Positions 1 to 33,363 of a stretch of 64,000 nt of DNA are shown here, one piece after another. This stretch comes from Actinomycetota bacterium. Its GTDB lineage: Bacteria; Actinomycetota; Thermoleophilia; Solirubrobacterales; 70-9. The notes beneath the pieces were generated by a model, which did not search any database, was not told where the DNA came from, and saw only the letters and a list, made by a program, of their open reading frames with translations. Made by a program: the position numbers and the translations under genes. The stretch covers positions 1-64,000 of the forward strand of contig JAFDWB010000032.1 of assembly GCA_018268675.1 (NCBI GenBank). The letters run 5' to 3'. How positions within the stretch are numbered: position 1 is the stretch's first letter; each line of letters opens with the position of its first letter.

Positions 1-50
1 CACCTGTCGCTGCAGCGTGTCCCGGACGTCTGAGGAAGGCGGGAGGAAGG

Positions 51-326
51 GTGACGGACCTCCCCTTCCCCGGCCGACCCCGGTCAGCTGTTCTTTTTGC
101 CGGACTGGTCGGCACAAGGAACAGCTGGAGGGAGGGGCGTCCCCCAGGCGACGGCGACGTGCCACTTCGGTGACGAAGCCGTGGCGCTCCCGTGAACCCC
201 TCGCGACCCTTCCTCCTCTCCCCGCACCCTCGGCCGTCTCGGCCACGGCCACAGCCCGCCCGGGCCGTGGCCGAGACGGCCGCGTCCCTTGCCCCATCGG
301 GCGCCAGCCGGCAAGCGCCCCGGCAC
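51..326 (+). repeat. Structured intergenic repeat element, copy A
   Basis: This non-coding stretch is homologous, in reverse complement, to 33036-33300. It contains a hairpin at 85-127 (arms CAGCTGTTC / GAACAGCTG, then an inner TGCCG / CGGCA stem). A second hairpin has a perfect 20-bp stem, CGGCCGTCTCGGCCACGGCC at 231-250 pairing with 263-282. A third potential stem near 299-322 contains GGCGCC. Mismatches in the 85-127 stem become a G-U wobble if the plus strand is the RNA. It ends about 150 bases before the permease start. I do not recognise a known RNA family; a structured RNA or a MITE/REP-type element are both possible. Confidence 0.6.
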
Positions 327-405
327 GAAGCTCGTGGGATCAGCCGCCTGGTAGCGGCGCGGCGCGCGCCTGCGGCAACACCGAAGCGGCGCTTGTAGTC
401 GCGTG

Positions 406-5354: not shown

Positions 5355-5394
5355 GGGGCGCCCGCAAGCTGGCGCCCGAAGGAGAAGGGACGCG
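5355..5394. repeat. Partial module of the structured intergenic repeat
   Basis: GGGGCGC, then GCTGGCGCCCGA, then AAGGGACGCG match the end of copy A (reverse complement of about 281-322) and the start of copy B (33036-33075). The module forms a hairpin with 7-bp arms GGGCGCC / GGCGCCC. The rest of the gap (to 5539) is not clearly related to the full copies. Confidence 0.45.
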
Positions 5395-5441
5395 TCCCGG
5401 TCCCTCCCGTCTTCCTCATTGGTCAGAAAGACGCGTCGAAT

Positions 5442-5466
5442 ATTGGGGCGCTCAGGGCGGCCCAAT
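5442..5466. terminator. Hairpin between convergent genes
   Basis: ATTGGG and CCCAAT arms, extended inward by CGC/GCG pairs after one G-G mismatch, form a stem-loop. It lies between the convergent VOC gene and carbamate kinase. It could serve as a bidirectional terminator; no U-tract follows. Confidence 0.35.
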
Positions 5467-5539
5467 GTGCGGCGCGCTTCCCGGGGGCTCCGATTTCGGC
5501 CTCCCGAGGGCCCGGAACCCCCGCCGTCCCTCCCCGCCC

Positions 5540-6460
5540 TCAACGAGCCCCCGCCGCCACCGGCCCGACCCGCGTCCCGGCTTCGCCGCGCACGATCGCG
5601 GCGGCGTCGGCGAGGGCGCCGATCGCGGCGATGCGGCCGGTGGCGTCGACGAAGCGGCAGGCGGCGTCGACCTTGGGGCCCATCGAGCCGGCGGCGAAGG
5701 TCATGGTGCGGAGCTGATCGGCCTCGGCCTCGCGCAGGGGGCGGTCGTGGTCGGTCCCCCACGCGAGGTGGACGGCGTCGACGTCGGTGAGCATCAGGAG
5801 CAGGTCGGCGTCGAGGCGGCGCGCGAGGAGGGCGGCGGTGAGGTCCTTGTCGACGACGCCCTCGACGCCGCGCAGGCGGCCGTCGGCGCCGAGGGTCACG
5901 GGGATCCCGCCGCCGCCGGCGCAGATCACGAGGACGCCGGCGTCGATCAGGAGGCGGAGCGGGCGCAGCTCGGAGATCGCGCGGGGCTCGGGCGAGGGGA
6001 CCACGCGGCGGTAGCGGTCGCCGTCGCGGCCGAGCACCCAGCCGCGCTCGGCGCGCAGACGGGCCGCCTCGGCGGCGGAGTAGACCGGGCCGATCGGCTT
6101 GGTCGGGTCCTCGAAGGCCGGGTCGTCGGGATCGACGACGGTCTCGGTCAGCACCGTCACCACCTCCCGGCCCGGCATCAGGTTGCGCAGCGCCAGCTCG
6201 AGCAGGTGGCCGACCATCCCCTCGCTCTCGGCGCCGAGGACGTCGAGCGGATACGGGGCGACGCTGCGGTAGCTCTCGCTCTGCAGCGCCAGCAGCCCGA
6301 CCTGGGGACCGTTGCCGTGGGTGACGACGAGCTCGTGGTCGGCGGCCAGCTCCGCCAGCCCGACGGCCGCGGCCTCGACGTTGCGCCGCTGGGTGGCCGC
6401 GTCGGCCGGCTGGCCGCGGCGAAGCAGGGCGTTGCCACCGAGGGCGACGAGAATTCTCAT
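5540..6460 (-). CDS. arcC: Carbamate kinase
   Basis: The 306-residue enzyme (normal length) transfers phosphate from carbamoyl phosphate to ADP, the ATP-yielding last step of the arginine deiminase pathway. It shows the N-terminal LVALGGNALL, VTHGNGPQVGLL near residue 50, GGGGIPV, the DKDLTAALLA segment, LLMLTDVD and GSMGPKVDAA of the amino acid kinase family. I start at MRILVALGGNALL (6460); an upstream in-frame ATG at 6565 would add an Arg-rich, non-homologous leader that overlaps the divergent response regulator. It lies apart from arcAB on the opposite strand and is divergent from the regulator gene at 6553. Confidence 0.95.
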   Translation of the reverse strand: MRILVALGGNALLRRGQPADAATQRRNVEAAAVGLAELAADHELVVTHGNGPQVGLLALQSESYRSVAPYPLDVLGAESEGMVGHLLELALRNLMPGREVVTVLTETVVDPDDPAFEDPTKPIGPVYSAAEAARLRAERGWVLGRDGDRYRRVVPSPEPRAISELRPLRLLIDAGVLVICAGGGGIPVTLGADGRLRGVEGVVDKDLTAALLARRLDADLLLMLTDVDAVHLAWGTDHDRPLREAEADQLRTMTFAAGSMGPKVDAACRFVDATGRIAAIGALADAAAIVRGEAGTRVGPVAAGAR

Positions 6461-12937: not shown

Positions 12938-14046
12938 CCGGCGCCGCCCGCATCCTCACCGTCAACGCGGGCTCCACGAGCCTCAAGCTGCGGGTGCTGG
13001 GGCCCGACGACGAGGTGCTGGCGCGGCGCGACGGCGGGCCGACCGAGGACCCGGAGGGGCTGCGGGCGGCGCTGCGGGAGCTCCTCGACGCCGGGCCGGA
13101 GCCCGACGCCGCCGCCCACCGGGTGGTGCACGGCGGCGCCGCGTTCGACCGGCCGACCGTGGTCGACGCGGGCATCGAGGCGGGGCTGGAGCGCCTCGCC
13201 GACCTGGCGCCGCTGCACAACCCCCAGGCGGTGCGGGCGATGCGGGCGCTCGCGGCGCTGCGTCCCGACCTCCCCAACGTCGCCTGCTTCGACACCGCCT
13301 TCCACGCCGGGCTCCCGCCGGCGGCCCGGACCTACGCGCTTCCCGCCGCCTGGGCCGCGGGCCGCGAGCGGCTGCGGCGCTACGGGTTCCACGGGCTGTC
13401 CCACGCCTATGCGAGCCGGCGGGCCGCCGAGCTGCTCGGCGCGCGCGCCGAGGACCTGCGGCTGGTGACCGCGCACCTCGGCGGCGGCGCCTCGTTGGCG
13501 GCGGTCGCGGGCGGGCGCTCGGTCGACACGACGATGGGCTTCACGCCGCTCGAGGGCCTGGTGATGGCGACCCGCGCCGGCTCGGTCGACCCGGGCCTCC
13601 TGCTCTGGGCGCAGCGACACCTCGCGCTCGGCCCGGACGAGATGGAGCGGGCGCTCGACCGCGAGGCCGGCCTGCTCGGCCTCGCGGGGACCGCCGACAT
13701 GGAGGAGATCGTGGCGGGCGCCGCGCGCGGCGAGGACCGCCCGTCCCTGGCCCTCGACGTCTACATCCACCGCCTCACCGCCGCGATCGCCGCGATGGCG
13801 GCGGCGATGGGCGGCCTCGACGCGATCGTCTTCACCGGCGGCGTCGGCGAGAACGCCCCCGCGGTGCGGGCCCGCGCCTGCACCGGGGCCGCCTTCCTCG
13901 GCGTCGCCCTCGACCCCGCCCGCAACGAGCGCGGCGAGCCCGACACGATCCTCTCCCCGCCCGGGGCAGCCGCCGCCGCGGTCCTCGTCGCCGCCCGCGA
14001 GGACATCGAGATGGCGCGCCAGACGCGCCGCCTCCTGGCCTCCTGA
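12934..14046 (+). CDS. ackA: Acetate kinase
   Basis: The 370-residue enzyme makes ATP and acetate from acetyl phosphate. The ASKHA-fold motifs are present: NAGSTSLK near the N terminus, HRVVHGG, FDTAFH, YGFHGLSH, HLGGGASL and FTGGVGENAP near the C terminus. It is slightly shorter than the usual 400 residues, without loss of a motif. The GTG start overlaps the phosphoketolase TGA (GTGA), giving the classic xfp-ackA pair in which acetyl phosphate is converted to ATP. Confidence 0.96.
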   Translation: MTGAARILTVNAGSTSLKLRVLGPDDEVLARRDGGPTEDPEGLRAALRELLDAGPEPDAAAHRVVHGGAAFDRPTVVDAGIEAGLERLADLAPLHNPQAVRAMRALAALRPDLPNVACFDTAFHAGLPPAARTYALPAAWAAGRERLRRYGFHGLSHAYASRRAAELLGARAEDLRLVTAHLGGGASLAAVAGGRSVDTTMGFTPLEGLVMATRAGSVDPGLLLWAQRHLALGPDEMERALDREAGLLGLAGTADMEEIVAGAARGEDRPSLALDVYIHRLTAAIAAMAAAMGGLDAIVFTGGVGENAPAVRARACTGAAFLGVALDPARNERGEPDTILSPPGAAAAAVLVAAREDIEMARQTRRLLAS

Positions 14047-14054
14047 CGGGCGCG

Positions 14055-14096
14055 CTGCAAGGGTTGGTGTCGCTATGGCGACCTAAATCCTTGCAG
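14055..14096. terminator. Stem-loop after acetate kinase
   Basis: CTGCAAGG (14055-14062) pairs with CCTTGCAG (14089-14096) around an inner imperfect stem TCGC/GCGA. It starts nine bases after the ackA stop, so it may terminate or protect the long stress-protein/xfp/ackA transcript. No U-tract follows. Confidence 0.45.
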
Positions 14097-14144
14097 CGGT
14101 TCCCCGGACCTCGATCCCGGGCCTCCCGGAGCGCTCCCTCACAA

Positions 14145-14179
14145 GGGACGGTCACGAAAGTCCGACTTCGCACCGTCCC
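14145..14179. repeat. Nested hairpin related to the structured intergenic repeat
   Basis: GGGACGGT pairs perfectly with ACCGTCCC and encloses a second stem, CGAAAGT/ACTTCG. The segment ACGAAAGTCCGACTTCG and the following GC-rich tail resemble the CGAAGT-ACTTCG hairpin block of copy B (33185-33199). The gap 14047-14342 otherwise holds the terminator-like stem at 14055 and the promoter box at 14281. Confidence 0.35.
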
Positions 14180-14280
14180 TGGGCCCGCTCCCTCACTCAC
14201 CCGTCAAACCCCCGGCCGCGGCATCAACCACCGGAGCCGCTCCGCCCGGTGCCCACCACAACCGCCGCTGCGGCCCCGCA

Positions 14281-25525: not shown

Positions 25526-25964
25526 CGTGGCCCCCTTCGTGCTCGGACCCGTCGCCGCCGGCGCCGGACCCGCTGGTCGCCGTGCTGACCGGCGGCGCGC
25601 CGGACCCGCTGGTCGCCGTGCTGACCGGCGGCGCGCCGCCCCCGCTGGTCGCGGTGGCGAGCGGGACCGCGGCGGTCGAGGAGCTGCCCGAGCTGCCGGT
25701 CGCCACCGGCGGGGCGCCGGTCGCCGCGGTGGCGCCCGCCGGGGCGGTGCCCGGGACGGTGCCGCCGGCGGCCGCCGGATGCTTCGGCTTGGCGTGCTTG
25801 GTCACGTGGATCGTCTGCCGGATCACCTTGGTGTGGACCAACGGGTGGGCGGCGACCGTCGATTGGGTCGGCTGTCCGTGGTTCTGGCCGAGGGCGAATC
25901 CGGCGATGCCTCCGAGGCCGAGCACGGTCGCGGCGGCGGCGATTCTGGAGTTCAGTCTGGTCAC
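25518..25964 (-). CDS. Small exported His- and Thr/Ala-rich protein, unknown
   Basis: The 148-residue protein starts with a signal or anchor (RIAAAATVLGLGGIAGFALG) followed by NHGQPTQSTV. It then has a His/Lys-rich segment (HPLVHTKVIRQTIHVTKHAK) and a low-complexity Gly/Ala/Thr/Ser tail containing repeated ATSGSGAPPVST units, ending EHEGGHDD. The helix-LG-NHG pattern and acidic DD ending recur in the protein at 28530. I use the GTG at 25964, close behind GAGGAG; an upstream ATG at 25997 lacks a ribosome site. It heads the minus-strand ApbE operon and diverges from the OmpR-type regulator gene. Confidence 0.7.
   Translation of the reverse strand: MTRLNSRIAAAATVLGLGGIAGFALGQNHGQPTQSTVAAHPLVHTKVIRQTIHVTKHAKPKHPAAAGGTVPGTAPAGATAATGAPPVATGSSGSSSTAAVPLATATSGGGAPPVSTATSGSGAPPVSTATSGSGAGGDGSEHEGGHDD
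25561..25668. repeat. Three tandem 36-bp repeats inside a coding region
   Basis: Two exact 36-bp units (25561-25596 and 25597-25632) and one diverged unit (25633-25668) encode the repeated 12-residue GSGAPPVSTATS-type unit of the small exported protein. Being a multiple of three, copy-number change keeps the frame. Confidence 0.9.
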
Positions 25965-28185: not shown

Positions 28186-28529
28186 GGGTGCCGACCAGCC
28201 TCCGCTGGGTCGCCTTGGCACTGCTCGGCCTGGTGATCGCGATCGCGATCGCGATCGCCGCGAGCAGCCTGGCGAGCCAGCAGATCGGGATCGCCTCCGA
28301 ATCGGTCTCCGCCGGGGACACGCTGGCGCCGCCGATCACCCCGACCCACGCGCGGCGGCACCCGGGGGCCGGCGGTGCCGCCGAACGGACCGAACCGACC
28401 GAACGAACCGAACCGATCAAACCGCACGAACGGACCGAACCGACCGAAGCCGTCGAACCAGAACTGCGCTCCTACAACGGCGGCGAAGACGGCGGACAAA
28501 CCCAGGGCGGCGGCGGTCCCGACGACTGA
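28182..28529 (+). CDS. Small single-pass membrane protein with ERTEP repeats, unknown
   Basis: The 115-residue protein overlaps the kinase stop (ATGA). It has one N-terminal helix (WVALALLGLVIAIAIAIAAS), then an outside tail with charged repeats (ERTEPTERTEP, then HERTEPTEAVEP) and a Gly-rich acidic end GGGGPDD. That ending resembles GGGQDD of the convergent small protein at 28530 and GGHDD of the protein at 25518. The family is unknown. As the third gene of the two-component operon it could be a sensor accessory or a target protein. Confidence 0.7.
   Translation: MRVPTSLRWVALALLGLVIAIAIAIAASSLASQQIGIASESVSAGDTLAPPITPTHARRHPGAGGAAERTEPTERTEPIKPHERTEPTEAVEPELRSYNGGEDGGQTQGGGGPDD
28235..28258. 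repeat. Four tandem GATCGC hexamers
   Basis: Four exact copies of GATCGC encode the Ile-Ala alternation of the membrane helix in the small protein. The six-base unit keeps the frame, so slippage would only change helix length. Confidence 0.85.
28382..28448. repeat. Imperfect coding repeat (ERTEP units)
   Basis: A 22-bp sequence occurs exactly at 28382-28403 and again at 28427-28448, with related units between, encoding ERTEPTE stretches of the small membrane protein. Confidence 0.8.
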
Positions 28530-32717: not shown

Positions 32718-33026
32718 GTGGCTCCTCTCGATCGGCGGCTGGGCCGGCTTCGGGCTCGCCGCGGAGAAGGTGATGGCCCCGGCATCTTCGCCGCCCATGT
32801 CGAAGACCCCGACGCCACCCTCCTCGTCACCGACGCTCTGGTGGTCCTGGCGGGCAGGACGATCGGCCGGGTCTTCATGGTCGAGGTCGAACGGCCACCG
32901 CCCCGCATGCCCCGCGTCGCGGCGGCCTTCCGCGCCGACCCCCGCCTCGCCCCCACCCTGGTCGCCGGCCGAGTCGAGCTCGCGATGCGCGGCGGCAGGG
33001 CCTACCTGGTCGTCGTCCGGGACTAG
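32718..33026 (+). pseudogene. Short ORF, possibly a frameshifted membrane protein
   Basis: From about 32765 the frame reads plausibly (GPGIFAAHVEDPDATLLVTD, then LVVLAGRTIGRVFM) to the stop at 33026. Upstream in this frame the residues are Arg-rich. In the adjacent frame the DNA before 32765 encodes a convincing membrane segment (LLCWWLLSIGGWAGFGLAA). A single-base frameshift near 32765 would join them into one protein of about 110 residues. I cannot tell a real mutation from a sequencing error, and no family is recognised. Confidence 0.35.
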
Positions 33027-33035
33027 CCCGGGGGG

Positions 33036-33300
33036 CTCGGGGCCGGCAGGCTGGCGCCTGGGGACAAGGGACGGGCCGTCTCGTCCACGACCCTGGCGAG
33101 CTGTGGCCGTGGCCGAGACGGCCGGGTCTGTGGGGAGAGGGGAAGGGTCGTGGGGGAGTCACGGGACTGGCACGGGTCCGTGACCGAAGTGGAACTTCGT
33201 CCTCGTCAGGAGGACGCCCTCCGTCCAGCTGTTCCTTATGCCGGTATATCGACCATAAGGAACAGCTGGACGAGGAAGGCGTGGTCCGTCACCTTGCCGG
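33036..33300 (-). repeat. Structured intergenic repeat element, copy B
   Basis: This copy is homologous over about 265 bases to the reverse complement of 51-326. Its hairpins are 33226-33268 (15-bp arms starting CAGCTGTTCCTTATG), 33074-33123 (arms GGCCGTCTCG... / ...CGAGACGGCC with two mismatches) and CGAAGT-GGA-ACTTCG at 33185-33199. Conserved single-stranded blocks include GGCTGGCGCC, CAAGGGACG, GGGGAGAGG, GAAGGGTCG and GTCCGTCAC. It fills the gap between the ORF ending at 33026 and the reductase ending at 33364. Confidence 0.6.
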
Positions 33301-33363
33301 CTTCCCACGCACACCGCCCGGGGCACCTCGGACGGCCGCCCGGGCCCAGGCCCAACAACCGCG

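What the first reader, a model, noticed from the sequence alone, without database searches (positions are those of the whole stretch)
51..326. A long, multi-hairpin intergenic element present in two near-complete copies
Reverse complement of 51-326 aligns over about 265-275 bases with 33036-33300. The shared blocks include GGCTGGCGCC, CAAGGGACG, GGCCGTCTCG, a run starting CTGTGGCCGTGGCCGAGACG, GGGGAGAGG, GAAGGGTCG, CCGAAGTGG, CCAGCTGTTCCTT and GTCCGTCAC. Stems are preserved while loops differ: the 85-127 hairpin has loop GACTGGT, and the 33226-33268 hairpin has a different loop with a longer stem. Pairing preserved with diverged loops suggests selection on structure. No reading frame is shared. 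I know no RNA family with this layout.
Basis: partly seen in the sequence, partly recalled or inferred. Interest (0 to 1): 0.75.

Follow-up and report, generated by a model that had tools for sequence, protein, structure and literature searches.

The report
Dispersed hairpin repeat after bacterial genes
The two similar stretches are copies of a non-coding, hairpin-built DNA repeat found dozens of times in this bacterium and in five relatives, almost always just after genes; it resembles known REP/BIME repeats but is much larger, and the enzyme that usually spreads such repeats was not found.

Summary
Window 51-326 and 33036-33300 (inverted) belong to a dispersed, non-coding repeat with at least 40 places in the host genome. 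The full unit is about 0.55 kb here and up to about 1 kb in relatives. Copy 1 is cut by the contig start. Two more degenerate copies lie at 5363-5580 and 14048-14206.

The unit is bounded by two inverted hairpins (H1, H6) that share a loop, CACAGCCTGCCMGG, but not stems. Copies sit at gene 3' ends, mostly between convergent genes, almost never in divergent gaps. A covariance model finds the end only in 6 of 12 genomes of one genus, nowhere else among 232 genomes of the order.

Best reading: a BIME/REP-like mosaic palindromic repeat, non-autonomous, spread at the DNA level, probably a hairpin 3' boundary for transcripts (inferred). It is not a standard REP: stems are 20-24 bp, no Y1/RAYT transposase or target duplication was found. 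Copies are recombined mosaics. New variant of a known kind; mobiliser unknown.

The parts
1..313 (+). Copy 1 of the element, left part missing (contig starts here); right end at about 313, up to about 345 in a three-copy subset
   Evidence: 92-96% to full-length copies L002, L003, L009 over window 1-308; flank alignment
1..17 (+). 3' arm remnant of hairpin H3 (CGACACCTGTCGCTGCAGCG)
   Evidence: alignment with full copies
85..127 (+). Inner hairpin H4: stem CAGCTGTTCYTT conserved, loop varies between copies
   Evidence: fold -26.3 kcal/mol, z -7.3
229..284 (+). End hairpin H6: 20-bp stem, loop ACAGCCCGCCCG; conserved end of the element
   Evidence: fold -48.2 kcal/mol; covariance model R1 hit at 224-289, 81.8 bits
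283..313 (+). Tail: CGTCCCTTG followed by terminal motif CGGGCGCCAGCCGGC (inverted GCCGGCTGGCGCCCG), repeated as a 32-38 bp array in SZAS-9
   Evidence: motif scan; tail arrays
5363..5580 (-). Degenerate copy between convergent genes (glyoxalase-like gene ending 5342, amino-acid-kinase gene ending 5540), with terminal motif at 5364
   Evidence: 63-66%, best E 1.8e-9; motif; Pfam
14048..14206 (-). Truncated copy with an H3-type hairpin, directly after the acetate kinase gene (stop at 14046)
   Evidence: 81% over 160 bp to L026, E 2e-34; sequence; Pfam
33046..33352 (-). Copy 2, complete on the H6 side, H1 region lost; lies between two convergent genes (stops at 33026 and 33364)
   Evidence: 78-85% to full copies; gene calls
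33074..33123 (-). End hairpin H6 of copy 2
   Evidence: R1 hit 33066-33131(-), 77.8 bits; fold -32.3 kcal/mol
33222..33272 (-). Inner hairpin H4 of copy 2 (stem extended, different loop)
   Evidence: fold -34.6 kcal/mol, z -9.6

Best explanation
It is a non-autonomous, BIME/REP-like mosaic palindromic DNA repeat family confined to one clade of a Solirubrobacterales genus. SHOWN: each full copy has two inverted end hairpins (H1, H6) with a common loop CACAGCCTGCCMGG and stems that coevolve. AAGGGACG lies outside each, and inner hairpins lie between them. The right end carries a terminal motif (GCCGGCTGGCGCCCG). Copies are dispersed, non-coding, species-specific in sequence, recombined among themselves, and placed at gene 3' ends. 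INFERRED: the end hairpins with their constant loop are what a trans-acting nuclease or recombinase recognises when the DNA is single-stranded or cruciform. Arms are kept complementary by hairpin-templated correction and/or selection. Copies homogenise by short-tract gene conversion. Insertions survive mainly downstream of stop codons, where the hairpins act as a roadblock or stabilising 3' end for transcripts arriving from one or both sides. The enzyme that moves the element is not identified.
For: At least 40 places in the own genome, several at contig ends. Inverted H1/H6 pairs with the same loop 240-850 bp apart in G000, SZAS-9, SZAS-14, SZAS-15, RYN_247 and 70-9; the H6 model also recognises H1 at about 50 bits. 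Covariation: 8 of 20 H6 pairs and 24 cells with two-sided changes against 5.5 cells in shuffles, 0/500; H1 25 extra pair types against 11.5, 0/1000. Position, own genome: repeat-bearing gaps of the connected family 20/46 convergent, 22/147 tandem, 3/85 divergent (Fisher 2e-8 convergent against divergent). Other genomes: 22, 15 and 1 copies against 42, 124 and 70 gaps (Fisher 8e-11). Within-genome copies are more alike than orthologous-slot copies between species. Linkage between sites decays to the unlinked value: 0.17 at 10 bp or less, 0.62 above 100 bp, expectation 0.62; same trend in SZAS-9. The fumC slot holds one hairpin in 73 bp in non-carrier G004, about 600 bp of element in G000 and 1249 bp in G006. 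No coding signal: no excess of changes at one codon position, and 1-nt indels.
Against: No Y1_Tnp/RAYT in any of 12 genus genomes. No autonomous partner and no target duplication found. Stems of 20-24 bp and a unit of 0.5-1 kb are outside the published REP ranges (PMC3733652). At the acn and fumC slots, G000 and G006 (and G007 at acn) carry an element in the same orientation, so some copies may be old and vertically inherited rather than recently inserted. Transcription or termination effects are not tested.
Confidence: 0.7

Rival explanations
1. MITE: a non-autonomous derivative of a DDE transposon, with GCCGGCTGGCGCCCG as terminal inverted repeat, moved by a classical transposase now absent or on an unassembled contig.
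For: Terminal motif facing inwards at both ends of several composites, at or near stop codons; inverted end hairpins; high within-genome identity of the young group.
Against: No target duplication: longest shared word between the two flanks averages 6.6 within a copy against 6.9 between copies. The left end of the 0.55-kb form has no good copy of the motif. No copy encloses a transposase gene in 764 kb.
Confidence: 0.15
2. Structured non-coding RNA family: the element is transcribed and works as a folded RNA.
For: Very stable folds, covariation, 3'-end position where read-through transcripts would include it. G-T mismatches outnumber A-C (69:7 in H6, 33:8 in H1).
Against: Most H6 G-T cells come from one position (58 of 69), after which G-T and A-C are close. 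The excess in H1 and H6 falls on opposite strands, so no single transcript benefits. Whole-element alignment gives a poor covariation term (+3.6). No Rfam family at gathering score. Inner modules differ between copies and species.
Confidence: 0.1
3. Host bidirectional terminators that became alike by gene conversion, not a mobile element.
For: Location at 3' ends and between convergent genes; a single long hairpin fills the fumC slot in the non-carrier G004; mosaicism.
Against: The same 0.5-1 kb multi-hairpin unit recurs at unrelated loci; 0 of 24 element-adjacent genes in 764 kb had an ortholog beside an element in the sampled relatives (small sample); no T-tract terminators at copy 2.
Confidence: 0.05

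Closest known systems
BIME (bacterial interspersed mosaic elements: REP/PU pairs in inverted orientation with fixed spacer modules)
   Same: Inverted hairpin ends, mosaic inner modules, dispersed at gene 3' ends and convergent gaps, non-coding, tens of copies or more
   Different: Hairpins of 20-24 bp with a constant loop, unit 0.5-1 kb with several different inner hairpins, no RAYT gene found in carriers
GTAG and CGTC REP superfamilies (2013, PMC3733652)
   Same: Palindromes located predominantly between convergent or unidirectional genes, often under 20 bp from the stop codons; CGTC families are also listed without a transposase association; CGTCCC follows the hairpin here too
   Different: Published stems 5-13 bp (CGTC: 8-9) and CGTC loops 4-5 nt; here stem 20-24 bp and loop 10-12 nt; the word Actinobacteria does not occur in that paper's main text
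REPINs
   Same: Two inverted hairpins as one replicating unit
   Different: REPINs are short and tied to a RAYT gene; here the unit is 0.5-1 kb and no RAYT was found
MITEs
   Same: Short non-autonomous repeat with an inverted terminal motif
   Different: No target duplication, no related autonomous element found

Membership tests
BIME | Palindromic units in alternating (inverted) orientation with recurring spacer modules | tested here: met
   H1/H6 inverted pairs in G000 and in SZAS-9, SZAS-14, SZAS-15, RYN_247 and 70-9; recurring and shuffled inner hairpins
BIME | Extragenic, at gene 3' ends, many copies | tested here: met
REP (GTAG/CGTC) | 20-40 bp palindrome, stem 5-13 bp, loop 2-20 nt (CGTC: 8-9 bp, 4-5 nt) | tested here: not met
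   stems 20-24 bp, total 50-60 bp against Table 1 of PMC3733652
REP (GTAG/CGTC) | Unpaired GTAG or CGTC tag at one end | tested here: inconclusive
   CGTCCCTT follows H6 in many copies, but CATCCCTT, GTGCTCG and others occur
REP/REPIN mobilised by RAYT | RAYT (Y1_Tnp, PF01797) gene in the genome | tested here: not met
   0 of 12 genus genomes; 5 of 14 control genomes ring; caveat: draft genomes of 78-100% completeness
MITE | Terminal inverted repeats plus target-site duplication | tested here: not met
   terminal motif present but no duplication
MITE | Related autonomous element | tested here: inconclusive
   none in 764 kb of own genome; whole genome not available as a file
Known structured RNA (Rfam 15) | Score above gathering threshold | tested here: not met
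   no match on the window; only matches below gathering score in three loci
Intrinsic (T-tract) terminator | Stem-loop followed by a T run | tested here: not met
   0 sites at copy 2

The most novel reading that the evidence does not exclude
A class of large, structured, non-autonomous bacterial repeats that spreads and stays homogeneous without any HUH/RAYT or DDE transposase, through hairpin- or cruciform-templated copying and short-tract gene conversion, so that its copies form a freely recombining population inside one genome.
Probability: 0.15. Interest if true: 0.75.

Novelty: new variant of a known kind. Interest (0 to 1): 0.5.

Why it matters
It extends BIME-like mosaic repeats to Solirubrobacterales, with much larger hairpins and a constant loop, in genomes where the usual mobilising enzyme was not found. 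It raises a testable question: which nuclease, if any, recognises the shared loop. Loss of linkage within about 100 bp between dispersed copies is an unusually clear record of recombination among repeats. The repeats also coincide with many contig ends in these MAGs.

Tried and rejected
Y1 transposase/RAYT: none. IS91 Y2 transposase: none, but the control genomes were silent too, so uninformative. IS110 and reverse transcriptase: occur without correlation to element presence. Rfam: no match at gathering score; at permissive E-value only sub-threshold matches, mostly eukaryotic microRNA models, to GC-rich hairpins, rejected as chance. Phage, plasmid and viral collections: no match. The hit in another family, G159, has no element anatomy around it and reads like coding sequence; rejected as chance. 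Hidden protein: a reverse-strand frame is open over the full length in most young copies, but changes are not concentrated at one codon position and 1-nt indels occur. Target duplications: none. Systematic sharing of slots with relatives: 0 of 24, small sample. My first gene caller mislabelled antisense ORFs and was replaced.

Full report
OBSERVATION. The inverted similarity between 51-326 and 33036-33300 is real and its hairpins fold far better than dinucleotide shuffles. The window is the first 64 kb of contig C25 of a 4.2-Mb, 95-contig genome. A search of that genome with window 40-340 gave at least 40 places, from 71 to 100% identity; only 40 candidates were scored, so this is a lower bound. 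Several places lie at contig ends. The left half of the unit gave a similar number. Two further, degenerate copies are in the window at about 5363-5580 and 14048-14206.

ANATOMY. Oriented copies with flanks show a unit of about 550 bp, of which copy 1 holds only the right 313 bp because the contig begins inside it. H1 and H6 carry the same loop in opposite orientation and different stems, so they form an inverted pair. One copy (L012) has the H1 loop flipped. In SZAS-9 and G006 the unit is about 0.9-1 kb, and the tail is repeated in 32-38 bp steps up to 6-9 times.

RELATIVES. In all of them the H1/H6 inverted pair recurs, 240-850 bp apart. A covariance model of H6 finds the end in 6 of 12 genomes of the genus and in no other of 232 genomes of the order; the single weak hit elsewhere, in G159, looks like coding sequence and is taken as chance. 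The carriers are the 3.8-4.7 Mb members of the genus; the non-carriers are 2.4-3.4 Mb. By fumC identity the carriers are the closest to the window genome.

STRUCTURE AND COVARIATION. On 22 diverse H6 sequences, 94.5% of cells pair, with two-sided changes in 8 pairs and 24 cells (shuffles 3.9 and 5.5; 0/500), and every slid register is far lower. H1 gives the same picture. Example: GGCCGTCTCGGCCACGGC in G000 against GGCCTTCTCGGAGGCGGC in SZAS-14, each with a complementary 3' arm and the same loop. The search pattern fixed part of the 3' arm but left the covarying positions free. G-T mismatches exceed A-C mismatches mainly because of one H6 position, and the preferred strands of H1 and H6 are opposite; I find no case for a single functional transcript.

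LOCATION. In 764 kb of the own genome, repeat-bearing gaps are 20 of 46 convergent, 22 of 147 tandem and 3 of 85 divergent. In tandem gaps the repeat is mostly near the stop of the upstream gene. In several convergent gaps it abuts both stop codons. The connected repeat family in that count includes a related class of shorter composites as well as the unit itself. In other genomes, copies away from contig ends are 22 convergent, 15 tandem, 1 divergent, against 42, 124 and 70 gaps (Fisher tests). Long near-perfect hairpins occur at 139 per 100 kb in convergent gaps, 83 in tandem, 21 in divergent and 4 in genes.

HISTORY. The fumC-aldehyde dehydrogenase gap is 73 bp with one hairpin in a non-carrier (G004), 158 bp in carrier G008, about 600 bp with the element in G000 and 1249 bp with a longer element in G006. 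At acn, G000, G006 and G007 have an element; G008, G011 and G001 do not. Copies resemble others of their own genome more than the copy in the orthologous slot. Between the ten youngest copies, incompatible site pairs rise from 0.17 (10 bp or less) to 0.62 (over 100 bp), equal to the unlinked expectation 0.62; SZAS-9 shows the same trend, SZAS-14 more weakly. The copies are thus mosaics of short tracts. Assembly chimeras are a conceivable but weaker cause, since tracts are shorter than usual k-mers while copies differ about every 12 bp (inference).

MECHANISM. Shown: dispersed DNA repeat, inverted hairpin ends with constant loop, coevolving stems, 3'-end location, recombination among copies. 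Inferred: recognition of the end hairpins by an unidentified host or element nuclease; arm matching by hairpin-templated correction or selection; a role as transcript 3' boundary. No RAYT/Y1 transposase is found in the genus; IS110 and reverse transcriptase do not track the element; no target duplication.

COMPARISON. It works like, and is located like, BIME/REP repeats; in PMC3733652, REPs lie predominantly between convergent and unidirectional genes, in the REP-rich genomes shown there most convergent ones lie under 20 bp from both stops, and CGTC families have no known transposase. It fails the REP size criterion and the RAYT criterion. Literature searches gave no description of such repeats in Solirubrobacterales; only openly licensed PMC papers were searchable. 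I file it as a new variant of a known kind.

Noticed in passing
C87 and C82 of own genome (L165-L200), e.g. C87:222270-222529, C87:108599-109069: A second, shorter composite class with the same terminal motif GCCGGCTGNCGCCCG and end hairpins GGCGCGSCCRTCCCCCTCAT with loop AACCAGCCGAAGC; the same inner site is filled by different hairpins (GGTGTTCCTTACTTG.., GGTGAGTTCGCA..), as if hairpins were swapped.
   Followed up: partly
L165-L200; L205 after fumC; L225 after acn: Several further dispersed hairpin families near gene ends, e.g. GTTGAYGGGCCGAAAASCGCTC-TATAT-..., CCCCTCGACGCTTGTC..., GCTTCCGAGCTTTCCCGCCA-TATA-...; the first is shared between G000 and G001 with compensatory changes.
   Followed up: partly
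A1 alignment (L002-L010, L015), window copy 1 group: Copies of the element are mosaics: linkage between variable sites is lost within about 100 bp.
   Followed up: yes
L012 around 1282-1330: The H1 loop is inverted relative to the other aligned copies, consistent with inversion between the hairpin arms.
   Followed up: no
genus genomes G000-G011: Carriers have 3.8-4.7 Mb genomes, non-carriers 2.4-3.4 Mb.
   Followed up: no
L226 2409-2701 (G006, after acn): Array of about nine 32-35 bp units (AGCTGTCGCCCGGGAAGGGATGGGGCCCC) outside the H6 end, iteron-like.
   Followed up: partly
L023 and C82:28946-29611: A hairpin insert (GAGTTCGCA type) lies inside the element between direct repeats of CCCTTCCTC / GACCCTTCCTC; it looks like a nested insertion with a target duplication, propagated as a subfamily.
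   Followed up: partly
window 28373-28459 and 25561-25668: 9-bp tandem array (CGAACCGAC type) and a 36-bp tandem repeat (2 exact copies plus one at 75%).
   Followed up: no
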